Shown: one piece after another, positions 2 through 9,421 of the stretch
Layout: every line of letters begins with the position of its first letter
How positions within the stretch are numbered: position 1 is the first letter of the stretch
Notes under the pieces: generated by a model
The model's input: only the letters and a program-made list of their open reading frames with translations
What the model was told of the DNA's origin: nothing
Database searches by the model: none
Made by a program: the position numbers and the translations under genes
Assembly (NCBI GenBank): GCA_037442505.1
Contig: JBBIPZ010000016.1
Span: 44,558 to 53,980 of the forward strand
From: JBBIPZ01 sp037442505 [NCBI: Deltaproteobacteria bacterium]
GTDB taxonomy: Bacteria; CALINM01
Length of the DNA stretch: 9,423 bases
Direction: 5' to 3'

Positions 2-823
2 GCTCTAAATTTTACTGACAAAAAAGACGTATTTAAGGGCATAGAAGCAATTGGCGTTTTAAAGGCTGATGTTGATAATCTGGGACTCATATTTGGATGT
101 GGTTTTAGAAAAGAAAGGTTTACTTTGTCTCGACTTGCTAATTTAAGCAGACAGCTAAATAACTTTTTCACTATCTTTTTGCCTTACACACTTAAGACTG
201 ATGCAAAGTTTAAAAATATTTATACCGTTTTTACTGGTGGAGATGATTTATTTTTAATTGGTCCCTGGAATACAATAATTGACTTTGCTCAATTTATCAA
301 CGACGAGTTTAGAAAATATGTTTGCGAAAATAACGATGTTACCTTGTCAGCAGGTATCACTGTTAATAAACCCGATACTCCAATTGTTGTAATTGCTGAA
401 CAGTCAGAGAAAGCTTTGAAAAAATCAAAAAAAGGTAGGAAAAATCGAATAACTTTATTTGGTGAAACTGCTGAATGGAGTGAGTTTAGGGAGCTTATGG
501 AAATAAAAAACACATTTGAGAAATGGCTTGAAAATGAAACAATTAACAATGCAATGATTTTTAGGCTTAATGAGTTTATAGAAACACGAAAACAGGAACA
601 GGAAATATTGAAGGGGCAAGTAATTACTATCGAGGATATGGAATGCTTTAAATGGAGGGCAAAATTCAAATATACCGTTGTTAGAAACATAGGCAAAAAG
701 CTTAAAGATGAGGAAAAGCAGAAACTTATTGATGAGTTTATGAAAATAGAAACATGTCTTGAAAAGTTTGGTGGAGCTTTAAAAATACCATTATGGCAAG
801 TAATTTATAATAATAGAAAATAA
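2..823 (+). CDS. cas10: Cas10/Csm1, C-terminal part (5' end outside window)
   Basis: This is the large subunit of the type III-A effector complex, which makes cyclic oligoadenylate when target RNA is bound. The frame is open from the window edge, so the gene is 5'-truncated here and 273 residues are visible. Visible residues 21-28 (KADVDNLG) match the start of the second Palm domain. The GGDD motif of the cyclase site lies at visible residues 79-82 (bases 236-247), followed by LFLIGPW. The last 100 or so residues are charged and helical, as in the small C-terminal D4 domain of Csm1. A TTG at 125 could be read as a start but lies inside conserved Palm sequence, so it is not the real one. The HD nuclease domain and first Palm domain would be upstream and cannot be judged. 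csm2 follows after 14 bases. The intact GGDD agrees with the cOA-dependent nuclease downstream. Confidence 0.95.
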   Translation, partial: ALNFTDKKDVFKGIEAIGVLKADVDNLGLIFGCGFRKERFTLSRLANLSRQLNNFFTIFLPYTLKTDAKFKNIYTVFTGGDDLFLIGPWNTIIDFAQFINDEFRKYVCENNDVTLSAGITVNKPDTPIVVIAEQSEKALKKSKKGRKNRITLFGETAEWSEFRELMEIKNTFEKWLENETINNAMIFRLNEFIETRKQEQEILKGQVITIEDMECFKWRAKFKYTVVRNIGKKLKDEEKQKLIDEFMKIETCLEKFGGALKIPLWQVIYNNRK

Positions 824-837
824 AAAGGAGGTTTAAA

Positions 838-1284
838 ATGGATATTGAATTCAAAAAAAATGGCAAGCTTGATCCTGAACTATTTTCTCAAAAAGCTCAA
901 AAGGTGGCTGAAGAAATTTCTAATGAGCGATCAGGTTCTTCTGGTGGACCTAATCAACAAAGTCAATTGAGAAAATTTTATGATGAAGTTTTAAGATTTG
1001 ATAGTATGCTAAAAGCTGTTCAGCCTGGAAATCAAGAAGCTGAGTTTGAAAAAATTTTACCCTATATCAAAATGCTAAATGCAAAAGCAGCTTACGCTGA
1101 AGGCAGAGGTCTTGTAACAAGTAAGTTTAAAGATTTTATTTCTCAAGCTTTAAAGCAGATAAAGACAAAAGCGGACTTCGATATATTTGTTGGATTGTTT
1201 GAAGCTTTTATGGGATTTTATAAATATTATGAAAAAGATAAAAGTTCACAAAAGAATAATAATAAAGGAGGGAATAGAAGATGA
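838..1284 (+). CDS. csm2: Csm2, small subunit of the type III-A complex
   Basis: Csm2 is the small helical subunit that lines the inside of the Csm complex along the crRNA-target duplex. The 148-residue product lies exactly between cas10 and csm3, the usual place for csm2. Its middle part (about residues 43-125) matches the family pattern: a first helix around LRKFYDEVLRFD, then FEKILPYIKMLNAKAAYAEGRG and a helical tail. The N-terminal 40 residues look flexible (SGSSGGPNQQ) and the C-terminus is a Lys/Asn-rich tail (residues about 136-148). A strong AGGAGG at 826-831 stands 6 bases before the ATG. The stop overlaps the csm3 start in an ATGA, suggesting translational coupling. Csm2 is poorly conserved, so the call rests on motif resemblance plus position. 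Confidence 0.92.
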   Translation: MDIEFKKNGKLDPELFSQKAQKVAEEISNERSGSSGGPNQQSQLRKFYDEVLRFDSMLKAVQPGNQEAEFEKILPYIKMLNAKAAYAEGRGLVTSKFKDFISQALKQIKTKADFDIFVGLFEAFMGFYKYYEKDKSSQKNNNKGGNRR

Positions 1285-1979
1285 AGCTTAAACTTATCAA
1301 GATCAAAAAACTCAATGGCAAAATAGTTCTTAAAAGTGGACTTCATATAGGTTCTGGTAATATGGAAATGCATATAGGCGGCACAGATAATCCTGTTATA
1401 AAACATCCTCATACACTTGAGCCATATATTCCAGGCTCATCGCTAAAAGGAAAAGTTCGTAGTCTTATGGAACTTGCAAGTGGTTTAGTGCCTTATGCTG
1501 AAGACAATGGAGGGCTTGTCACAGCAAAGGTTCTAAATAAATTACAAGATGAAAGCCTTAAAAAAGAAGCTCAGGCAATACTAAAAATTTTTGGTAGTGG
1601 TGGTGCCGATGCGGATGAAGATCATGGATTAGGACCAACAAGGGTTTCATTCAGTGATTGCTATCTTGATGAGGATTGGAAGAAAAAGGCTCAGGTAAAC
1701 AGGTGGCAACTTACAGAAGTAAAGTCTGAAAATAAGATAAATCGTATAACTGGTACCGCACTACATCCCCGTTTTATTGAAAGAGTCCCAGAAGGTACGG
1801 TGTTCAACTTTAGCTTGACATTTAAAATTCTTGATGAAAGCGATGAAGAATTATTTAAGAAGATCCTCAATGGACTAAAACTACTCGAGATGGATACTCT
1901 TGGTGGTAGTGGTAGCCGTGGATATGGCAGTATCAAATTTGAGGGATTAACTTGTGATGGGGAGCCTATTAATTTTTGA
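1281..1979 (+). CDS. csm3: Csm3, backbone RAMP subunit and target-RNA nuclease
   Basis: Csm3 forms the repeated backbone of the Csm complex and cuts bound target RNA at 6-nt intervals. The protein has 232 residues, close to the family norm. The RAMP start is clear (GKIVLKSGLHIGSG, residues 13-26). The loop IGGTDNPVIKHP follows, in which Asp36 matches the catalytic Asp of known Csm3 proteins (Asp32/33 in well-studied ones), so RNA cutting is likely intact. YIPGSSLKGKVRSLME is the conserved RAMP helix motif, and TLGGSGSRGYGSIKF near the C-terminus is the glycine-rich loop. Translation is probably coupled to csm2 through the ATGA overlap. GGAGGG lies just before the ATG at 1281. Confidence 0.97.
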   Translation: MKLKLIKIKKLNGKIVLKSGLHIGSGNMEMHIGGTDNPVIKHPHTLEPYIPGSSLKGKVRSLMELASGLVPYAEDNGGLVTAKVLNKLQDESLKKEAQAILKIFGSGGADADEDHGLGPTRVSFSDCYLDEDWKKKAQVNRWQLTEVKSENKINRITGTALHPRFIERVPEGTVFNFSLTFKILDESDEELFKKILNGLKLLEMDTLGGSGSRGYGSIKFEGLTCDGEPINF

Positions 1980-1993
1980 ATAATAAGTTTCAA

Positions 1994-1999
1994 AAGGAG
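1994..1999 (+). promoter_or_regulatory. Ribosome binding site that fixes the csm4 start
   Basis: AAGGAG lies 6 bases before the ATG at 2006. It favours that ATG over the in-frame TTG at 1976, which overlaps the end of csm3 and has no good site at a suitable distance. The N-terminus starting at 2006 (MRTYEITIKP) also matches the usual start of Csm4 proteins. Confidence 0.8.
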
Positions 2000-2005
2000 T
2001 TCTTA

Positions 2006-3028
2006 ATGAGAACCTATGAAATAACAATAAAACCAATCTCTGGTTTTGGTACGCTAATAAAGGGAGACACACTTTTTGGACATATATGTTGGCAGGCAAT
2101 TTATGACAGCTCTTTATTTGATAAGAGCTTAGGTGATTTACTCAGTGATTATAACAAAAATCCCTTTTTGGTTATATCTTCTGCTTTTCCTAAGATAGGT
2201 GATTTATACGCACTTAAACGTCCAGATATGCCACTTGACAAGCTCTTTAACTTTAGCAGTTTAAATAAAAAAGATATTTTAGCTAAACGTAAAGAACTAA
2301 AAGAAAAACGCTTGATGCTTGTTGGTGAAAAAAGTCCGTTAAGTGATTTAAAAAATGCTTTATATTTGAATGATGATGAGTTGTTTTGTAAAATACTGGC
2401 TCAAGAATTAAGCCCGTCTTACCGAAAGAAAAACAAAAAAAGTGTTACTGTATCATTCTCACAGCCACATAATACAATAAACAGATTAACTGGAACTACT
2501 GGTGAAGGACAATTTACTCCATACACAACAGAACAGACAGTATTTTCAACATCAATAGAATTAGCCATCTTTGCGGGGATAAGAGGTGACATTACAATCG
2601 AACAGCTAATTAAGGCATTGAAAATAGTTGGCAGCACAGGTTTTGGAAAAGATGCCTCCATTGGGCTTGGCAAATTTGATGTGAAAGATTATAAAGAATT
2701 AGACTTTAAATCACTGGGAAGTAACAATCCTAATGCTACTTATGTTCTTTCACCTGTTGTACTAAGCGAAAATAATTACAAAAAAATATATTTTTCACCT
2801 TTCGTGAGATTTGGCAGGCATGGTGATATATTAGCAAAGTCTAAAAACCCTTTTAAAAATCCTGTTATAATGGCAGATGAGGGTGCAGTATTAATTCCTA
2901 ATAATTTTGATTTTTCAAAACCATATATCGGCAAGGCGATTAACGGGATATCAAAAGTAGAACCAAAGGCAGTAACTCAAGGGTATTCTTTATACATACC
3001 TGTAAAAGTGGAGGAAATAGATGAATAA
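2006..3028 (+). CDS. csm4: Csm4, crRNA 5'-handle-binding RAMP subunit
   Basis: Csm4 pairs with Cas10 and caps the 5' handle of the crRNA at the foot of the Csm complex. The chosen start gives 340 residues. Residues 1-30 show the typical opening, with GTLIKGDTLFGHICWQ at about 15-30. The middle carries SFSQPHNTINRLTGTTGEGQFTPY-type sequence, split here only for description, which is the conserved strand around the His/Arg-rich part of Csm4. GSTGFGKDASIGLGKF at about 209-224 is the glycine-rich loop. The C-terminal 120 residues form the second RAMP-like half. The 3' end overlaps csm5 by 8 bases. Family membership is firm; no key residue appears missing. Confidence 0.95.
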   Translation: MRTYEITIKPISGFGTLIKGDTLFGHICWQAIYDSSLFDKSLGDLLSDYNKNPFLVISSAFPKIGDLYALKRPDMPLDKLFNFSSLNKKDILAKRKELKEKRLMLVGEKSPLSDLKNALYLNDDELFCKILAQELSPSYRKKNKKSVTVSFSQPHNTINRLTGTTGEGQFTPYTTEQTVFSTSIELAIFAGIRGDITIEQLIKALKIVGSTGFGKDASIGLGKFDVKDYKELDFKSLGSNNPNATYVLSPVVLSENNYKKIYFSPFVRFGRHGDILAKSKNPFKNPVIMADEGAVLIPNNFDFSKPYIGKAINGISKVEPKAVTQGYSLYIPVKVEEIDE

Positions 3029-4136
3029 AAGTAAACAGGTTAAAATAAGACTACATGTTTTATCTCCAATCCACATAGGATGTGGAGAAGTGTATGAGCC
3101 AACAAGTTTTATTATAGATGAAAATACAAAAAAACTCATAGAATTTGATCCCTTTGATTACATTAAATCATTAACCCAAGCCGAGAGTAAAGAATTCGAA
3201 AAGGTTGTTTCAGGAGACAAATTACTTGCTATTTTCAAAACAATAAAGCGTTTTTATAAGCGTCAGATAAAGTGCAAAGAAGTGGATGTAACTGATTATC
3301 TTATAGAACACTATAAAAAAATTCTTGAGATGGGCTCACATGACAAAAAAGCGGTAATAAATCAATTTACAATAGAGAAAACAGCATATAATTCAAACTC
3401 CCAAAAACCCTATATTCCTGGCTCTTCATTAAAAGGAGCATTAAGGACCGGTTATTTAAATGCATTAGCAAAAGAAAAAGGAATCACTAAACGGCAGGGC
3501 AAATCTGATGAACTTGAATCTCTTCTTTTAGATAGGCTAGATGGAAAACAAAAAATGTCTTCAGATCCATTTAGAATGGTCAAAGTTTCAGACCTTTTAC
3601 CGGTTAACAATGTGGCAACCAAAATACTATACGCAGTTAACAAAAAGAAGAAAAAAAACGATAAAGAGTTACTTACTGAAAAAAGCGGAATTTACCAGAT
3701 TTTTGAAACTTTGCAACCTGGGGCAAGTTTTGAAGGTACATTAAAAATAGACACTCCTGAAAAAAACTCCGGTATAAATAAACCAATTGAATTGGAGAAG
3801 TTATTACGCTCTGCACACTCTTTCTATGCCTCAAACTTGAATGAAGAAAAAAAATATTTAAGTGAATCTTTAAATATTGGACACAAGGCTGATATACTGG
3901 GTAATTCAAATTTTAAATTCGAAAAATCAGCTTTTCTTATCCGTATTGGAAAGCATTCGGGAGCAGAAGCGGTAACAATTGATGGATGCAGAAAAATAAA
4001 AATTATGCAAGGTCGCGGAAGGGATGATAGATCGAGCGAAAATTCAACTACTTTCTGGCTCGCATCAAATGAGCCAAAACCAGTTATTTATGATAGGCTC
4101 ATCCCCTTTGGATGGGCAGTGCTGGAGGTTGTATGA
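3021..4136 (+). CDS. csm5: Csm5, RAMP subunit at the crRNA 3' end
   Basis: Csm5 caps the Csm3 filament near the crRNA 3' end and helps crRNA maturation. The 371-residue product has the RAMP start LHVLSPIHIGCGEVYEPTSFI split over residues about 11-31 (key residues SPIHIG and the YEPT segment). YIPGSSLKGALR at residues 131-142 is the conserved helix motif. A Lys-rich stretch near residue 210 (KKKKK) is probably a surface loop. The C-terminus has a Gly/Arg-rich RGRD segment followed by a final strand, as in other Csm5 proteins. GGAGG at 3010-3014 precedes the ATG by 6 bases. The stop overlaps the next gene in an ATGA. Confidence 0.94.
   Translation: MNKSKQVKIRLHVLSPIHIGCGEVYEPTSFIIDENTKKLIEFDPFDYIKSLTQAESKEFEKVVSGDKLLAIFKTIKRFYKRQIKCKEVDVTDYLIEHYKKILEMGSHDKKAVINQFTIEKTAYNSNSQKPYIPGSSLKGALRTGYLNALAKEKGITKRQGKSDELESLLLDRLDGKQKMSSDPFRMVKVSDLLPVNNVATKILYAVNKKKKKNDKELLTEKSGIYQIFETLQPGASFEGTLKIDTPEKNSGINKPIELEKLLRSAHSFYASNLNEEKKYLSESLNIGHKADILGNSNFKFEKSAFLIRIGKHSGAEAVTIDGCRKIKIMQGRGRDDRSSENSTTFWLASNEPKPVIYDRLIPFGWAVLEVV
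4124..4128 (+). promoter_or_regulatory. Ribosome binding site that fixes the start of the CARF nuclease gene
   Basis: GGAGG lies 4 bases before the ATG at 4133, which overlaps the csm5 stop as ATGA. An in-frame ATG at 4112 would add seven residues (MGSAGGC) unlike a CARF start and would put the site inside the gene. Starting at 4133 places the first CARF strand (VQVCLVS) at residue 4, as expected. Confidence 0.7.
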
Positions 4137-5290
4137 ATAAAGTACAAGTATGCCTTGTATCAGAACAAACTATTCCAAATATACTAAGCATTTATGACTT
4201 CAAGCCCGATGAGATACTTTTCTTAAGCACAAAAGTGATGAAAGAAAAGGGTAAAGTAGCTCACATTATTAATGCTCTTAAGGAAATAGGTCTTGATTAT
4301 AAAAATAAATACACCGAACTTGTAGTAGTTGAAAATTCTTTATTAGATTGTAAGAAAAAATTTGATGAATGGATTGCGGGAAAAGAAAATTCTGAGTTTT
4401 TAATCAATTTAACATGCGGTACAAAGATAATGTCTATAGCTGCTTACGATTATTTTAAGGATTATGGTAGTAAAATGGGATACATTCCTATAAACAGTAA
4501 TGTCTTTATATTTATTTTTCCCAAAAATATTAACAATGTTGAAAAAAAAATAAATCTTAAACTAAAAGTGAATGCTTATCTTAAAGCATATGGACTTAAG
4601 ATTTTTAACCAAGACAAACTTATTATAAATAATCAAGAAGCGGAAAATAGACGCGAACTTACAAAATATATAGTTGAAAACTATGAAAAAGTAAAACCAC
4701 TATTACAAAGGTTTAGTGAAAAACTGAGGAAGCATCGCGGTGATAAAAAAGGTTTCTTATGGTCTACTTCCTACAGCCCTGAATCAACTGAAGAAAAAGA
4801 ATTATTTGACAAAATTGGTTTTATTAAAGAAGGAAATGAGTATAAAAAGCAGTTAAGTCAATCAGAAATAATTTGTCTAACTGGTGGCTGGCTCGAAGAA
4901 TTTTGTTACAACGAACTTTTACAATTTAAAGGCAATGGAATAGATGATATTTTAATTAGCGTTGGGGTAAAAGATCAAAAAGATAATCAAAATGAGTTTG
5001 ATGTTATGTTTACAAAAGACAATACTCTATATACTATAGAATGTAAATCTCTTGAGCAGGCTAATGATCCTAAAACTGACGCTTTATACAAGATTGCAGC
5101 CTTACAAAAGGAGTTTGGTCTTAAGGTGCATAGCTTCTTTGTTAGCACATCGCCTAACATTTTAAAAGATGGCGAGTTAAAACCATCAATCAAAGCAAGG
5201 GCAGAACAGTTAAATACAACTGTGATAAAACCGGATAATGTTATAAAGTTTGCATCAATTATATCTGATGAACTCAAACTTAATCAATAA
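4133..5290 (+). CDS. Card1/Can2-like CARF nuclease activated by cyclic oligoadenylate
   Basis: The 385-residue product joins an N-terminal CARF sensor (about residues 1-140) to a C-terminal PD-(D/E)xK nuclease (about 245-385), the layout and length of Card1 and Can2 (DUF1887 family). The CARF part starts with the strand VQVCLVS and has NLTCGTK at 92-98, the usual ligand-loop motif. The nuclease part shows GGWLEEFCYNEL (Glu255/256), NEFDV (Asp290) and IECKS (Glu303, Lys305), so the metal-binding and catalytic set looks complete. Members of this family studied so far are switched on by cyclic tetra-adenylate and degrade single-stranded DNA and RNA, or nick plasmid DNA, causing dormancy. That this one uses cA4 is inferred from the family. 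It sits right after csm5 where csm6 is often found, and no HEPN motif (RxxxxH) is seen in a fitting place, so it is not Csm6. Confidence 0.93.
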   Translation: MNKVQVCLVSEQTIPNILSIYDFKPDEILFLSTKVMKEKGKVAHIINALKEIGLDYKNKYTELVVVENSLLDCKKKFDEWIAGKENSEFLINLTCGTKIMSIAAYDYFKDYGSKMGYIPINSNVFIFIFPKNINNVEKKINLKLKVNAYLKAYGLKIFNQDKLIINNQEAENRRELTKYIVENYEKVKPLLQRFSEKLRKHRGDKKGFLWSTSYSPESTEEKELFDKIGFIKEGNEYKKQLSQSEIICLTGGWLEEFCYNELLQFKGNGIDDILISVGVKDQKDNQNEFDVMFTKDNTLYTIECKSLEQANDPKTDALYKIAALQKEFGLKVHSFFVSTSPNILKDGELKPSIKARAEQLNTTVIKPDNVIKFASIISDELKLNQ

Positions 5291-5303
5291 TGGGGAATAT
5301 CTC

Positions 5304-5552
5304 ATGCAGATTATTATAGATCTTAGCGAACTTTACACAGACACCGAAACAGCAAAAATTGCTAAACTTGCCGAATACACAGAAAAAGTCTTAAAACTCG
5401 CTGGTTCTGGCAATGAAGTAATACTCAAAGGTCAGGCACCTATCTGGCTTTATTTAAAAATAGCACATGCTTTACATGGCAAGGCATCAAAACTTATATA
5501 TAACTCTCCTGTGACTGGTGATTTAACCATATTTGACCATACTCCCTTTTAA
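5304..5552 (+). CDS. Csx3-like small protein, possible cOA-degrading off switch
   Basis: The ATG at 5304 gives 82 residues, with GGGG at 5292-5295 as a modest ribosome site. The in-frame TTG at 5250 lies within the preceding gene and is unlikely. Residues 38-63 (EVILKGQAPIWLYLKIAHAL and on) match the Csx3 core, in which a strand is followed by G-x-(G/A)-P-x-W-L and a helix with His (here His55 and His58). TGDLTIFDHTPF at the C-terminus resembles the closing strand and His-x-P segment of short Csx3 proteins. Csx3 is known as a cA4 ring nuclease and RNA-binding protein, so placement 13 bases after a cA4-type effector suggests a counter-enzyme. The YDP-(x)-R region of archaeal Csx3 is replaced here by IYNSP, so an acid and an Arg thought important elsewhere are missing. 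Activity is therefore uncertain. Family call is by motif only. Confidence 0.68.
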   Translation: MQIIIDLSELYTDTETAKIAKLAEYTEKVLKLAGSGNEVILKGQAPIWLYLKIAHALHGKASKLIYNSPVTGDLTIFDHTPF

Positions 5553-5684: not shown

Positions 5685-5984
5685 ATGGAAAACAAAAATA
5701 TCATATCACAAAAAATTATTTACACACATCATTCAATAGTTACCCTAAGCAAACGTCGTATAAATGTGGAAATGGTTGAAAAAGCTCTTGAATACGGAAG
5801 ACATATTTATGCTAACGGCGCTCATATCTGTTTTGTGGGCAAAAAAGAAGTAAAAAGAGCAAAAAATATGGGAGTTAATATACAAAATCTCGATGGGTTA
5901 AATCTAATTATGCAGGAGCAAGATGGCAAAATAATTTTAGTTACAGGTTTCAAAAACAGCTCTTTAAAAAGATATAAACATTAG
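5685..5984 (+). CDS. DUF4258-like small protein heading the adaptation block
   Basis: The 99-residue protein resembles the DUF4258 family: an opening strand and helix with THHS...SKRRI (His15, His16, Arg24, Arg25), then a helix VEKALEYGRHIY. Next comes a strand with the GKKEVKRAKNMGV segment, then LDGLNLIM, and a closing DGKIILVTGFKN...KRYKH (Asp80 to the end). DUF4258 proteins are often small, found in many thermophiles and cyanobacteria, and suspected to be toxin-like (RelE/BrnT-like fold); no function is firmly known. AGGAGG at 5671-5676 is 8 bases before the ATG. cas2 begins 10 bases after its stop, so it belongs to the adaptation transcript. No antitoxin-like partner gene lies beside it. 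A role in spacer uptake, in control of the operon, or as an unrelated passenger cannot be told apart here. Confidence 0.7.
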   Translation: MENKNIISQKIIYTHHSIVTLSKRRINVEMVEKALEYGRHIYANGAHICFVGKKEVKRAKNMGVNIQNLDGLNLIMQEQDGKIILVTGFKNSSLKRYKH

Positions 5985-5994
5985 GGGAGCAAAA

Positions 5995-6276
5995 ATGACA
6001 AGGGTGTTATATTTGGTGGCTTACGATATTACCGATCCAGGAAGGCTTTACAAGGTGCACAACGTGATAAAAAACTTCAGCACCGGAGGGCAAAAGTCTG
6101 TGTATGAATGTTTTTTAACCGATAGAGAGCTGGAACTGATGCTTAAATATCTTTGCAAGGTAATAAATATAAAAAATGACAGATTACACATATTTGTGAT
6201 GGATGGTAGAAGTAGAACGCACACCTTAGGGATAGCAGTTCAACCAAGAGATCCAAAATTCTTTTTCATTGGATAA
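5995..6276 (+). CDS. cas2: Cas2, copy A
   Basis: Cas2 bridges two Cas1 dimers in the spacer-integration complex. The 93-residue product has the ferredoxin-like Cas2 fold pattern: first strand VLYLVAYDITDPGR with the conserved Asp11, helix LYKVHNVIKNF, the segment TGGQKSVYECFLT, a second helix and the strand RLHIFVMD. The C-terminal tail TLGIAVQPRDPKFFFIG is of the kind that contacts Cas1 and is typical of Cas2 proteins paired with a standard Cas1, which follows 15 bases downstream. GGGGAG at 5984-5989 precedes the ATG. It differs strongly in sequence from the second Cas2 at 8035-8328. Confidence 0.95.
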   Translation: MTRVLYLVAYDITDPGRLYKVHNVIKNFSTGGQKSVYECFLTDRELELMLKYLCKVINIKNDRLHIFVMDGRSRTHTLGIAVQPRDPKFFFIG

Positions 6277-6291
6277 AGGAGGTTATAAATT

Positions 6292-7260
6292 ATGGGAACA
6301 ATTTATATCGACAGAAAGGACGTTCATATAAAACTTGATGGCGATGCATTAACATTTTATGTAAATGGAACCAAAGAGGGACAGGCACCAATTTATCCTT
6401 TAAAAAGAGTTGTAATTGTTGGCTCCGTGACAATAGATACAAAAGTGTTGCATCGTCTTGCCAATGACAATATAAGCGTAATTTTCCTAACAGGTAAAAA
6501 TTTACGATTTGGGGGAATGTTACACGGTTTTTTGCACAACAACGCAATAATCAGACTAAAGCAGTACGAAGCAACAAAAACGGACTTTCCTGTGCAGTTT
6601 TCCAAAAATTTGGTATGCAATAAAATTAAGTCTCAGATCGAATTTTTAACTGAATTGATAGATTTACGAAAAGATTTAAGAAATGATTTTATAACGGCAA
6701 TAAAAACTTTGTTAGAAATCACTGCAAAAGTGAATCTTCAGGATATAGGGATAGATTCGGTTAGAGGATACGAAGGAGGTGCAGCGGCGGTTTATTTTGA
6801 TACATTTACAAAGCTGTTTCCAGCCTCATTAAATTTTAATAAAAGGACTAAGAGACCGCCCGAAGACCCCGTTAATGCATTACTTTCGCTGTGCTATACC
6901 ATTCTTCATTTTGAAATGGTGAGAGAGATACAGCTAATTGGCTTAGACCCCACCATAGGATTTTACCATACATTTGAATATGGCAGGGAATCCTTGGCAT
7001 GCGATTTTGTGGAACCTTTCAGGGTAAAAGTAGATAAATTTGTCTGGCAGTTATTTAAAGACAGAACTTTCACAAAAGACGATTTTAGCAATGAAAAAGA
7101 ACGGGCGGGCTGTTATCTAAAGAAGCAAAGTAGGGCAAAGTTCTATCCGATTTTAGAAGAATGGCTGACAGAATTAAGACCTCAATTAAGGTCGTATGTA
7201 AGAAATTTTACAAGGAGTATAGCAGATGAAGAAGACATTATATCTGAACAAGATAACTAA
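6292..7260 (+). CDS. cas1: Cas1, copy A, intact CRISPR integrase
   Basis: This is the spacer integrase of CRISPR adaptation. The 322 residues have the N-terminal beta domain (1-80: TIYIDRKDVHIKLDGDALTF region, PLKRVVIVGSVTID, ISVIFLTGKN) and the helical catalytic domain. All metal-binding residues are present: Glu161 in RGYEGGAAAVYF, His226 in IGFYHTFEYGRESL and Glu241 in CDFVEPFR (Asp238 beside it). The segment KRPPEDPVNALLSLCYTIL (185-204) is the standard Cas1 signature between them. AGGAGG at 6277-6282 precedes the ATG by 9 bases. The 3' end overlaps the next gene by 35 bases. No Cas4 or reverse transcriptase fusion is present. Confidence 0.98.
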   Translation: MGTIYIDRKDVHIKLDGDALTFYVNGTKEGQAPIYPLKRVVIVGSVTIDTKVLHRLANDNISVIFLTGKNLRFGGMLHGFLHNNAIIRLKQYEATKTDFPVQFSKNLVCNKIKSQIEFLTELIDLRKDLRNDFITAIKTLLEITAKVNLQDIGIDSVRGYEGGAAAVYFDTFTKLFPASLNFNKRTKRPPEDPVNALLSLCYTILHFEMVREIQLIGLDPTIGFYHTFEYGRESLACDFVEPFRVKVDKFVWQLFKDRTFTKDDFSNEKERAGCYLKKQSRAKFYPILEEWLTELRPQLRSYVRNFTRSIADEEDIISEQDN

Positions 7261-8023
7261 ACATTTTATCAAAGTAGATGGCCCATCTCTTTGGGTAAAA
7301 ACTAAAACTACCTCTGGATACAGAATACCTTTAAGGAGTATAGAAACAGCTGTCATAAACGCAAATGCAGATTATGATTGGAATATGATATCAACGATAC
7401 TATTTTCTGGGATTCCCACTATCTTTTACAAAGGCAAGGAGATATTAACGATTCATTCCATACCATATTTAGAAAATGGTTATTTTTATGAACTGTCACA
7501 GAGGGCAGCAAAAAACAAAAAAGAAATATTGTCAAAAGTAAGATTTTTGCTACTAACTACCAAAAGAGAAACTGAAATAAAGACATTAAAAACTTTATCT
7601 GAAAATCATGGAAAAGCTTTTGAAGAAAGAAATTATAAAAACGACCAGTATAGATATGAGATTCTTCAATTATCCGAAACAAATTTTATACAATATTCTG
7701 TAGTAAAAAAATTTTTAAGAGGTTTATTACGTCAGATAATTATTAAATCCTGTATAAACAAAAGCATAGACCCAAAAGTAGGCATTTGCTTTCAAGATGA
7801 GAAACTGGGGATAGTTAAAGATATATCGTTTTCAATTGATGCAGAAATGGATTTAATTGCGGTGAAGTTCTTCAAAATAAAACAGCAAAGCTTCTGGGAG
7901 AGCTCTAACTGGCTTTCAGATGCGGGGATAAAAATGTTAGCTATATTATTCGAAAAGCGAAAGGAACAAATTAAACACAAAATAAACGAAACAATAGACA
8001 AAATTATCGATATAATTTATTAA
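7226..8023 (+). CDS. Degenerate Cas1-like paralogue, copy B, probably catalytically dead
   Basis: The 265-residue protein reads as a shortened Cas1. Residues 1-73 follow the Cas1 beta domain: TLYLNKITKHFIKVDGPSLW, then PLRSIETAVINAN and a helix, then SGIPTIFYKGKE, in the same order and spacing as Cas1 copy A. In the second half, SIDPKVGICFQ (180-190) lines up with GLDPTIGFYHT, so the catalytic His is Phe189. IVKDISFSIDAEMDL (196-210) lines up with LACDFVEPFRVKVDK, keeping the Asp (199) but replacing the catalytic Glu by Phe202 and losing the PFR. Glu151 in LSETNFIQYSV may match the first catalytic Glu. The RPPxDPvNALL block is missing, which accounts for most of the shorter length. The reading frame is clean and has its own AAGGAG at 7212-7217, so it is a maintained gene, not decay. 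A structural or DNA-binding partner role is inferred. My alignment is by eye. Confidence 0.72.
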   Translation: MKKTLYLNKITKHFIKVDGPSLWVKTKTTSGYRIPLRSIETAVINANADYDWNMISTILFSGIPTIFYKGKEILTIHSIPYLENGYFYELSQRAAKNKKEILSKVRFLLLTTKRETEIKTLKTLSENHGKAFEERNYKNDQYRYEILQLSETNFIQYSVVKKFLRGLLRQIIIKSCINKSIDPKVGICFQDEKLGIVKDISFSIDAEMDLIAVKFFKIKQQSFWESSNWLSDAGIKMLAILFEKRKEQIKHKINETIDKIIDIIY

Positions 8024-8034
8024 AGGACAAAACA

Positions 8035-8328
8035 ATGAAAGCGAACTACTTAGTATGTTATGATATAAAAGATGAAAAAAGACTTGCAAAAGTTTATAAA
8101 ACCTTGTCAGGTTTGGGCATTCACTTGCAATATTCAGTTTTTTATTGTAAATTTGACTGGGAGCAGCTAATGAGAATTAAAGAGATATTAAAAGAACTAA
8201 TAAATGAGAAAGAAGATGATGTTAGAATTTATCCGCTGCCAGAGAAAACAAAGGTACTGGCATTAGGTGCTGGTTACATAATACCAGATGGTATAAAGGT
8301 GATATTAAATGAAAATTCCATTTCTTAA
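8035..8328 (+). CDS. cas2: Cas2, copy B (divergent second Cas2)
   Basis: The 97-residue product is a second Cas2: first strand NYLVCYDIKDEKR with Asp10 conserved, helix RLAKVYKTLSGLG, then HLQYSVFYCKF, a long helix, and the strand DDVRIYPLP. The HLQYSVF and DDVRIYPLP forms belong to another Cas2 subgroup than copy A (which has GGQKSVYECF and a PRDPKFFFIG tail), so the two are not a recent duplication. AAAGGA at 8022-8027 precedes the ATG, 11 bases after the end of the degenerate Cas1, and the 3' end overlaps cas6 by 20 bases. It is probably made together with Cas1 copy B and may pair with it. Being Cas2 is secure; partner choice is inferred. Confidence 0.93.
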   Translation: MKANYLVCYDIKDEKRLAKVYKTLSGLGIHLQYSVFYCKFDWEQLMRIKEILKELINEKEDDVRIYPLPEKTKVLALGAGYIIPDGIKVILNENSIS

Positions 8329-9247
8329 AATGACATTTTTAATCGAGGCAGAAGAAGAGTTATATCTACCATACTTCAAAGGCTCAACATTTCGTGGTGT
8401 TTTTGGCAACACTTTTAGAAAGCTCGTATGTGCGTTAAAAAGAGAGAACTGTAGCAGTTGCATTTTAAAACAATCTTGTATATATGCGTATATTTTTGAA
8501 ACATCACCCAAAGAAGACCAAAAATTATCAAAAATAAAAAACTACAGCACCATTCCTCGCCCGTTTGTAATCGAACCACCTTTAAACAACGGCAAAATAT
8601 ACAAACCTGGTAGCCAATTAGACTTTTCAGTAATACTTATTGGAAAGGCGATACAGTATGTACAGTATTTTATTTACACATTTCATCAATGTGGCAGGAC
8701 AGGTATTGGTAAAGGTAGAGGCAAATTTCAACTTATATCCGTTTCTTCAAATAAAGAGCAAATATATAGTGGTGTAAATAATGAAATAAAATTGCCACCG
8801 CATCAATTTATAGAAATTCCAGAGGATATTGATTTTGACAATTCAGAAGAAGAGCTTACTCTGGAGTTTTTAACTCCGGCTAGGATTAAGCACAAGCGGG
8901 ATTTAGTAGTAGAACTTAACTTTTCAATACTAATTAAGGCATTATTATTTCGTTTTAATTTTCTCAACTTTTACCATGTCGATGAAAGGGAAGCTGCATT
9001 TGATTACAAAAAATATATTGCAAAAGCTAAAGAAAATGTGATAAAAGAAAATAATACCTTTTGGTGGGACTGGGAGCGTTATTCCAACAGACAGGGCGGA
9101 AGGATGAAATTAGGTGGGATATGTGGTAAAATAACATATAAAGGTAAAATCAAGTCTTTTTTGCCGCATCTAAGAGCTGGGGAGATACTTCATGTTGGGA
9201 AGGGGACGAGTTTTGGACTTGGGAAATTTGTAATAATCGAAAACTAA
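8309..9247 (+). CDS. cas6: Cas6, pre-crRNA processing endoribonuclease
   Basis: Cas6 cuts the array transcript within each repeat to make crRNAs for the Csm complex. The 312-residue product has the usual opening of the larger COG5551-type Cas6: LYLPYFKGSTFRGVFGNTFR (residues 18-37). Four cysteines follow (Cys41, 48, 51 and 57) in a C-x6-C-x2-C-x5-C cluster that probably binds a metal, then PRPFVIEPP and the CGRTGIGKGRGKF loop (128-140). The second RAMP half (from about 183) ends in the glycine-rich HVGKGTSFGLGKFVI. The catalytic residue is not certain; His223 is a possible candidate. A modest ribosome site (AAAGGTG, 8295-8301) stands before the ATG inside cas2 copy B. It is the last gene before the candidate array. 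Confidence 0.93.
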   Translation: MKIPFLKMTFLIEAEEELYLPYFKGSTFRGVFGNTFRKLVCALKRENCSSCILKQSCIYAYIFETSPKEDQKLSKIKNYSTIPRPFVIEPPLNNGKIYKPGSQLDFSVILIGKAIQYVQYFIYTFHQCGRTGIGKGRGKFQLISVSSNKEQIYSGVNNEIKLPPHQFIEIPEDIDFDNSEEELTLEFLTPARIKHKRDLVVELNFSILIKALLFRFNFLNFYHVDEREAAFDYKKYIAKAKENVIKENNTFWWDWERYSNRQGGRMKLGGICGKITYKGKIKSFLPHLRAGEILHVGKGTSFGLGKFVIIEN

Positions 9248-9382: not shown

Positions 9383-9421
9383 GTTGTAGGAAATAAGACC
9401 TCAAATCAAAGGGATTGCGAC
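9383..9421 (+). CRISPR. Candidate first CRISPR repeat, array cut by window end
   Basis: The 39-base segment begins GTTGTAGG and ends GGGATTGCGAC. The ending resembles the ATTGAAAC-like 3' end that becomes the 8-nt crRNA handle in many type I and III repeats. The ends can pair (GTTGTA with TGCGAC, using G-U pairs), as in repeats with terminal inverted ends. It follows cas6 at typical distance and length. Only one copy fits in the window, so the array is not proven and the exact repeat borders are estimates. The last two bases (9422-9423) would begin spacer 1. Confidence 0.5.

What the first reader, a model, noticed from the sequence alone, without database searches (positions are those of the whole stretch)
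7226..8023. A maintained, catalytically degenerate Cas1 paralogue inside the adaptation operon
Seen: a 265-residue frame right after an intact Cas1 keeps the Cas1 beta-domain pattern and the (I/L)DPxxG motif, but has Phe189 in place of the catalytic His and Phe202 in place of the catalytic Glu, and lacks the RPPxDPvNALL block. Known: Cas1 needs Glu/His/Glu(Asp) to bind metal and integrate spacers. Inferred: it is a non-catalytic subunit, perhaps forming mixed dimers with Cas1A, choosing or holding prespacers, or giving integration polarity. Its clean frame, own ribosome site and 35-base overlap with cas1 suggest selection to keep it.
Basis: partly seen in the sequence, partly recalled or inferred. 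Interest (0 to 1): 0.85.

Follow-up and report, generated by a model that had tools for sequence, protein, structure and literature searches.

The report
Inactive Cas1 partner of CRISPR integrase
Beside the enzyme that writes new memories into a bacterial CRISPR array sits a second, worn-down copy of the same enzyme that has been kept across several bacterial phyla, probably as the non-cutting half of the machine.

Summary
ORF 7226-8023 is a Cas1-fold protein (model pLDDT 82.6; Z 22.0 to solved Cas1) beside an intact Cas1A. By profile alignment, Phe189 and Phe202 stand at the catalytic His and Glu. It is not a local oddity: of 83 loci chosen for a close Cas1A, 53 carry such a Cas1B right after cas1A, 50 of them as cas2a-cas1A-cas1B-cas2b. 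Relatives occur in 46 of 395 genomes of L005's phylum and 20 of 369 of L014's class. Cas1A and Cas1B fall on two sides of one branch, with correlated divergence (r 0.85); the upstream and downstream Cas2s split likewise. Cas1B is under purifying selection, yet its N-terminal domain is kept and its catalytic domain loosened. Its model fits the non-catalytic protomer of a solved casposase complex (TM 0.76 versus 0.52). Best reading: a dedicated non-catalytic Cas1 protomer, paired with Cas1A and docked on Cas2. No complex has been shown. PADLOC already has a profile titled 'Cas1, diverged variant, second in the loci' (51 of 53 members; window only E 0.049), so the family is catalogued; I found no account of its function. 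Caveats: many relatives keep one or two catalytic residues, and 15 related loci lack Cas1B.

The parts
5995..6276 (+). cas2a, upstream Cas2 (93 aa)
   Evidence: PF09827 E 5.1e-14; falls among the 65 'upstream' Cas2 rows, split from the 81 downstream rows by one branch, support 97
6292..7260 (+). cas1A, catalytically intact Cas1 (322 aa)
   Evidence: PF01867 E 9.5e-74; E161, H226, E241 and RPPEDP present and conserved in its clade; AF2 model pLDDT 85.7
7226..8023 (+). cas1B, degenerate Cas1 paralogue (265 aa), the subject of the finding
   Evidence: PF01867 23.1 bits; AF2 Cas1 fold; F189 and F202 at the His and Glu positions
7226..7465 (+). N-terminal beta domain of Cas1B (about residues 1-80), the better conserved half of the family
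   Evidence: mean pairwise identity N/C 0.474/0.314 in 50 close loci, 0.339/0.187 in 40 distant loci
7766..7834 (+). IDPKVG motif to F202: degenerate active-site region of Cas1B (residues 181-203)
   Evidence: hhalign with Cas1A; column counts
8035..8328 (+). cas2b, downstream Cas2 (97 aa)
   Evidence: PF09827 E 7e-21; downstream side of the Cas2 tree
8309..9247 (+). cas6 (312 aa)
   Evidence: PF10040 E 8.2e-17
9386..9421 (+). first CRISPR repeat, 36 nt, cut off from its array by the window's end
   Evidence: same GGGATTGCGAC end as arrays held with related loci, e.g. 17 copies in L003 and 20 in L005 (downstream of the module) and 94 in L013 (the copies listed lie upstream of it)
2..4136 (+). 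type III-A effector genes: cas10 (3' end), csm2, csm3, csm4, csm5
   Evidence: csm4 TIGR01903 E 6.1e-29, csm5 TIGR01899 E 8.4e-22; cas10, csm2 and csm3 named from order and read from the ORFs, not scanned against a library here

Best explanation
Cas1B is a dedicated non-catalytic Cas1 protomer. In the solved Cas1 complexes described in the passages I saw, Cas1 works as asymmetric dimers: one protomer joins DNA, the other does not, and in the Cas1-Cas2 complexes that other one lies against Cas2. There, one gene does both jobs. Here the jobs are divided between two genes: Cas1A is the catalytic protomer, and Cas1B takes the non-catalytic, Cas2-facing place, holding the dimer together and gripping or capping the prespacer end. 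Two different Cas2s (Cas2a and Cas2b) bridge the halves. Shown by computation: fold, loss of catalytic residues, conserved operon, separation from Cas1A by one branch, correlated divergence with Cas1A, purifying selection, inverted domain conservation, and a monomer model in the non-catalytic conformation. Inferred: Cas1A-Cas1B pairing, Cas2 docking, prespacer gripping, and any effect on polarity.
For: (1) Cas1 fold over the whole protein: Z 22.0, rmsd 3.3, 259 residues aligned. (2) Model TM-score 0.76 (rmsd 4.5) to casposase chain A and 0.52 (rmsd 9.1) to chain B; best VIA chain is C; the structure paper's legend calls A and C noncatalytic and B and D catalytic (passages of PMC6977970). In the one control, the Cas1A model made the same way does not take that conformation (0.61 and 0.63, rmsd 18.1 and 14.2). 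(3) Motif loss: E161 82 of 82 Cas1A versus 9 of 53 Cas1B; RPPxDP 81 of 82 versus 0 of 53; E241 82 of 82 versus 7 Glu plus 4 Asp of 53. (4) Next to cas1A in 53 of 53 loci and 45 of 46 loci of L005's phylum. The cas1B frame overlaps the cas1A stop in 72 of 92; longest-frame starts inflate this, but the median is -23 bases. Cas2 on both sides within 3 kb in 50 of 53. (5) One branch separates 82 Cas1A from 51 Cas1B (SH-aLRT 100); Mantel r 0.85 over 51 loci, 0 of 2000 permutations. (6) Median dN/dS 0.169 (Cas1B) versus 0.121 (Cas1A) over 13 pairs. (7) Conservation inverted: N domain kept and C domain loosened in Cas1B, the reverse of Cas1A in the distant set. In known complexes the non-catalytic protomer is the one beside Cas2 (passages of PMC6395717; passages of PMC8102632), and the C-terminus of the b protomer caps the overhang (passages of PMC10284694).
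Against: No complex was predicted or assayed: co-folding was not on offer. Fifteen related loci have no cas1B, 12 of them with Cas2 on both sides, so it is dispensable in some lineages. In the close clade His189 (30 of 51) and a possible Glu139 (34 of 51) persist, 21 rows with both, so inactivity is not certain for all members. The tree is a quick one without bootstrap, warns of long Cas1B branches, and might group them falsely, so a single origin is not proven. Correlated divergence also follows from plain shared descent. The window copy has a long branch (1.91, against 0.52 for its Cas1A) and is more AT-rich than its neighbours, which could mean relaxed constraint there. The conformer argument rests on monomer models, and the Cas1A control fits neither conformer well.
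Confidence: 0.6

Rival explanations
1. Cas1B is not part of the integrase hexamer but a separate DNA- or RNA-binding accessory that picks or delivers prespacers, or links adaptation to the type III effector.
For: Net charge of the window protein is +14 against +2 for its Cas1A; a type III backbone gene is found in the held flank of 27 of 52 Cas1B loci; the C-terminal domain diverges strongly, as if freed for a new job.
Against: The N-terminal beta domain, which pairs Cas1 protomers in solved structures (passages), is the better conserved part. Median net charge is 8 for Cas1B against 9 for Cas1A, so the charge is not a family trait. Divergence tracks Cas1A, which shared ancestry also explains.
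Confidence: 0.2
2. Cas1B keeps partial activity (for example at one of the two integration sites, or as a nuclease) in part of the family, so it is a specialised rather than a dead enzyme.
For: 21 of 51 close-clade rows keep both Glu139 and His189; Asp199, aligned with Cas1A Asp238, is kept in 50 of 51.
Against: None of 51 has all three positions, and only 2 have Glu or Asp at 202; the window has N139, F189 and F202; in the joint alignment 0 of 53 Cas1B rows have His at H226, though a gap there is misplaced in the close clade. The equivalence of position 139 with Glu161 is uncertain.
Confidence: 0.12
3. In this particular genome cas1B is a decaying relic of a once useful duplicate.
For: Longest branch among the 11 close-clade Cas1B in the tree; AT-rich codons; departs from the clade at 6 of 32 conserved columns (17, 30, 42, 46, 56, 184). 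Stops inside the match occur in relatives: G008, G320 and G233.
Against: 265 codons open with a ribosome site and overlap; D18, G19, P20, S21, R33, P35, Y142, G186, D199 and E243 are kept; 6 of 32 departures is not extreme (L128 10, L011 and L113 7); the model is confident.
Confidence: 0.08

Closest known systems
PADLOC PDLC01185 'Cas1, diverged variant, second in the loci'
   Same: Position directly after cas1; matches 51 of 53 family members at E 0.01 or better, best 3.6e-121
   Different: The window protein matches only at E 0.049, 11.3 bits. A profile title only, with no mechanism. Generic Cas1 profiles match as many members (51 of 53) and score better than it on L007 and L013, whereas L034 matches it at 3.5e-101, so the close clade lies outside its core
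Cas1 integrase (PF01867)
   Same: Fold, operon with cas2 and CRISPR array
   Different: Catalytic Glu, His and Glu and RPPxDP absent in the window; 57 residues shorter than its Cas1A; conservation inverted between domains
Non-catalytic Cas1b protomer of Cas1-Cas2 complexes and of casposase (chains A and C of 6opm)
   Same: Model conformation and the proposed role
   Different: There it is the same gene product as the catalytic protomer; here it would be a separate gene
Heteromeric enzymes with a pseudo-enzyme partner in general (recalled, no call)
   Same: A catalytically inactive paralogue kept as a structural partner
   Different: I know of no described case for Cas1; my paper searches of open-access PMC found none

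Membership tests
Cas1 (PF01867) | Sequence profile above curated cut-off | tested here: met
   window 23.1 bits versus 22.3; 52 of 53 family members match at E 0.01 or better
Cas1 (PF01867) | Cas1 fold (N-terminal beta domain plus helical domain) | tested here: met
   Model pLDDT 82.6; Z 22.0 over 259 residues
Cas1 (PF01867) | Metal-binding Glu, His and Glu/Asp of an active integrase | tested here: not met
   F189 and F202 at His and Glu, K138/N139 at the first Glu; 0 of 51 close relatives have all three
Cas1 (PF01867) | Integrase activity with Cas2 | not testable with these tools
   needs biochemistry
PADLOC PDLC01185 diverged second Cas1 | Second Cas1-like gene right after cas1 | tested here: met
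PADLOC PDLC01185 diverged second Cas1 | Profile match | tested here: inconclusive
   window E 0.049 over residues 5-71; 51 of 53 members of A4 match; hhalign links the close and the proteobacterial sets at E 1.1e-18
Cas1-solo / casposase | Lies outside CRISPR loci, or with PolB in a casposon (recalled; Cas1-solo also passages) | tested here: not met
   embedded in a type III-A operon with a CRISPR repeat
Non-catalytic protomer of a heteromeric integrase | Adopts the non-catalytic conformation | tested here: inconclusive
   monomer model favours it, TM 0.76 versus 0.52; complex not modelled
Non-catalytic protomer of a heteromeric integrase | Physical complex with Cas1A and Cas2 | not testable with these tools
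   no co-folding tool, no assay

The most novel reading that the evidence does not exclude
A four-gene, fully heteromeric CRISPR integrase: two Cas1A-Cas1B heterodimers bridged by a Cas2a-Cas2b heterodimer. Every subunit type has been duplicated and specialised, so the two halves of the machine are genetically different. This would hard-wire which prespacer end is integrated first and give orientation without the PAM-guarding Cas4 or DEDDh factors used elsewhere (the latter partly recalled).
Probability: 0.25. Interest if true: 0.85.

Novelty: new variant of a known kind. Interest (0 to 1): 0.6.

Why it matters
The Cas1-Cas2 integrases described in the passages I saw build their asymmetry from identical Cas1 chains. 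A lineage that gives the non-catalytic place its own gene, beside two distinct Cas2s, would let the role of that protomer be studied by mutation without touching catalysis. It would also offer a direct test of where spacer polarity comes from in type III systems. By the record titles the arrangement is found in Nitrospirae, Acidobacteria, Aminicenantes, Deltaproteobacteria and many proteobacteria, so it is a stable solution, not an accident. Annotation that counts it as a second active Cas1 would be misled.

Tried and rejected
Searches with the window protein alone found no relatives in plasmids, phages, viral contigs or genome contigs; relatives came only through the neighbouring Cas1A. phmmer against PDB sequences found nothing. 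BLASTP between the window's Cas1A and Cas1B found nothing and single-sequence hhalign was weak; only profiles link them.

Assembly artefact or one-off pseudogene: rejected, because the arrangement recurs in dozens of independent genomes. One searched phylum (L013's) gave only the two genomes already in hand, of 199.

I first noted that all Cas1B lack the catalytic Glu residues and that His is lost only in the window (note). The column counts corrected this: 9 of 53 have Glu in the E161 column, 11 of 53 Glu or Asp in the E241 column, and His is also replaced in 21 of 51 close-clade rows. I also first took the window copy to be the most diverged of its clade; by branch length it is the longest of the 11 close-clade rows in the tree, but at conserved columns three of 51 rows depart more.

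E. coli chain classes could not be mapped to catalytic or non-catalytic from the texts seen, so only the casposase mapping is used. The Cas1A model fits neither conformer well between its domains, which limits the control. Polarity from array repeats: in 10 arrays repeat mismatches were too few to test it. Paper searches cover open-access PMC only, and papers were seen as listings or passages, never whole.

Rows dropped: L074 Cas1A (split between two frames) from the Cas1A set; L010 (N-terminally incomplete frame) and L074 Cas1B from trees and dN/dS; L084, L085, L086 and L094 as repeats of L006, L005, L003 and L004; L104 and L127 (broken) from dN/dS. One of 53 rows of A4 also matches Cas2, an over-long frame left in. 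Of 65 pairs computed, 13 had dS between 0.05 and 1.5 in both genes and enter the dN/dS medians. The window's own genome is not held.

Full report
WHAT IS THERE. The window is most of a type III-A CRISPR-Cas locus: the end of cas10, csm2, csm3, csm4, csm5, a Card1-like CARF nuclease (4112-5290), a Csx3-like gene (5250-5552), a small ORF, then cas2a, cas1A, cas1B, cas2b, cas6 and the first CRISPR repeat (cas10, csm2 and csm3 are named from order). The repeat at 9386-9421 ends in GGGATTGCGAC, which is shared with arrays held with related loci: 17 copies in L003 and 20 in L005, downstream of the module, and 94 in L013, where the copies listed lie upstream of it. In the 10 arrays examined nearly all spacers are distinct (87 of 92 in L013, all in the other nine). 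These adaptation modules have therefore been used, at least in the past.

THE FRAME. 7226-8023 encodes 265 residues, starts 35 bases inside cas1A, and has AAGGAG before its ATG. None of 20,000 random sequences of like composition is open over that length. Pfam places it just above the Cas1 cut-off. The AlphaFold model (12 sequences, pLDDT 82.6, pTM 0.81) is a complete Cas1 fold: Z 22.0, rmsd 3.3, 259 residues aligned to T. maritima Cas1.

THE ACTIVE SITE. Profile-profile alignment with Cas1A (E 6.5e-10) puts Phe189 at His226 and Phe202 at Glu241. Glu161 falls at Lys138 beside Asn139. Across the joint alignment, Cas1A has E161, H226 and E241 in 82 of 82 rows and RPPxDP in 81 of 82. Cas1B has Glu at E161 in 9 of 53, RPPxDP in 0 of 53, and Glu or Asp at E241 in 11 of 53; at H226 none of 53 has His, but there a gap is misplaced in the close clade. 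Within the close clade of 51 Cas1B, His189 is kept in 30, a possible Glu139 in 34, Glu or Asp at 202 in 2, and all three in none. Inactivation thus looks piecemeal, and the window has lost all three.

HOW WIDESPREAD. With two plasmid loci and the window, 53 of 83 have a second Cas1-like frame directly after cas1A. All 11 loci with the closest Cas1A (49-57% identity) have it. Of the 53, all have a Cas2 upstream and 50 also one downstream within 3 kb; of 15 related loci without Cas1B, 12 have both Cas2s; of 15 outgroup loci none has the upstream one. In the phylum of L005 (Nitrospirota by NCBI ranks) 46 of 395 genomes match at E 1e-15, four of them already among the loci above. In 45 of the 46, cas1A is adjacent (in L125 only a contig-edge piece); L127 is a degraded locus without it. 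All 46 have a downstream Cas2 and 40 an upstream one in the held stretch. In the class of L014's Methylobacter genome, 20 of 369 match; for the 16 of these that one search had searched, a Cas1 lies adjacent in all 16. Phylum of L009: 5 of 198. Phylum of L013: 2 of 199, both already known. A type III-A or III-B backbone gene is seen in the held flank of 27 of 52 Cas1B loci, many flanks being short.

ORIGIN AND SELECTION. In a quick tree (SH-aLRT only) of 82 Cas1A and 51 Cas1B a single branch (support 100) separates the two, so one origin suffices. The tool warns of long Cas1B branches, so it is not proven. On the Cas1A tree, presence of Cas1B needs 9 changes (shuffled mean 24.5); the 15 loci outside the outgroup that lack it are most simply read as losses. 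Pairwise distances of Cas1A and Cas1B correlate at r 0.85, and at 0.80 within the 40 distant loci (0 of 2000 permutations each). The Cas2s upstream of cas1A (65) and downstream (81) also fall on two sides of one branch (97), the ordinary Cas2s on the downstream side (only 91 columns, so inner order is weak). Nei-Gojobori dN/dS, 13 non-independent pairs with usable dS of 65 computed: median 0.169 for Cas1B and 0.121 for Cas1A. Cas1B is kept by selection but evolves faster (mean identity 22% versus 44%). No pair includes the window, so selection on this very copy is inferred from its open frame.

WHICH PART IS KEPT. In Cas1A of the distant loci the C-terminal domain is the more conserved (N 0.402, C 0.484), as in Cas1A without a partner (0.390, 0.442) and in the outgroup (0.351, 0.413). 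In Cas1B it is the reverse: 0.339 versus 0.187 (distant), 0.474 versus 0.314 (close). In the close set Cas1A is nearly even (0.568, 0.539). In Cas1 dimers the N-terminal beta domains pair, and a strand of Cas1 meets the Cas2 tail (passages of PMC6977970). A protein that keeps this half while its catalytic half drifts is what a structural partner should look like.

CONFORMATION. The casposase paper describes dimers with a catalytic and a noncatalytic monomer and names chains B and D catalytic, A and C noncatalytic (figure legend). The Cas1B model scores TM 0.76 (rmsd 4.5) to chain A and 0.52 (9.1) to chain B, and VIA picks chain C. Other entries show a like two-class split (for example 4xtk, 2yzs, 7cr6 and E. 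coli entries), but I could not map those chains from text. The Cas1A model, made the same way, does not adopt that orientation; it fits neither chain closely. This is suggestive, not proof: both are monomer predictions.

MECHANISM. In E. coli the 3' overhangs enter Cas1a while Cas2 lies beside Cas1b and far from Cas1a (passages of PMC6395717). In the Megasphaera complex a C-terminal hairpin of the b protomer caps the PAM end (passages of PMC10284694). In the RT-Cas1 complex the Cas2 tail meets the non-catalytic Cas1b (passages of PMC8102632). The simplest reading is that Cas1B has taken the b place for good, leaving chemistry to Cas1A. Where Cas1B is absent, Cas1A presumably fills both places, as in other systems. 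Whether two Cas2s make the halves unequal and so give polarity is the bold extension, untested here.

KNOWN OR NEW. PADLOC holds 'Cas1, diverged variant, second in the loci'. It matches 51 of 53 members at E 0.01 or better, as do two generic Cas1 profiles, but the window only at 0.049. A methanotroph paper notes a III-A system with two copies of cas1/cas2, also in Acidithiobacillus ferrivorans (passage of PMC6119699). Nine paper searches (open-access PMC only) gave no account of function.

VERDICT. Observation confirmed; interpretation supported as the likeliest, at 0.6, pending a complex.

Noticed in passing
window 9386-9421: First repeat of the CRISPR array (36 nt), cut by the window's end; its 3' end is conserved in arrays of related loci.
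   Followed up: yes
window 4112-5552: Card1-like CARF nuclease gene overlapping a Csx3-like gene (ring nuclease family), i.e. a probable cyclic-oligoadenylate effector and off-switch side by side.
   Followed up: no
window 5685-5984: 99-residue ORF between csx3 and cas2a with only a weak DUF4258 hit (E 0.015) and no PADLOC hit.
   Followed up: no
L001, L002, L015, L017, L019, L033, L037, L039, L044, L047, L048, L050, L054, L060, L063: Related loci without Cas1B, 12 of 15 with both an upstream and a downstream Cas2: natural comparison set.
   Followed up: partly
L010 (G008), L104 (G320), L124 (G233): Stop codons inside cas1B matches, reported by the tool: occasional decay.
   Followed up: no
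L123, L124, L126: cas1A-cas1B-cas2b with no upstream Cas2 found in the held stretch: Cas1B without Cas2a.
   Followed up: no
L065 15199-15756 (-): A further weak Cas1-like frame some 3 kb from the module.
   Followed up: no
L074: cas1A split between two frames while cas1B looks intact.
   Followed up: no
L001: cas2-cas1-cas2 beside BREX genes on a Sphaerotilus plasmid.
   Followed up: no
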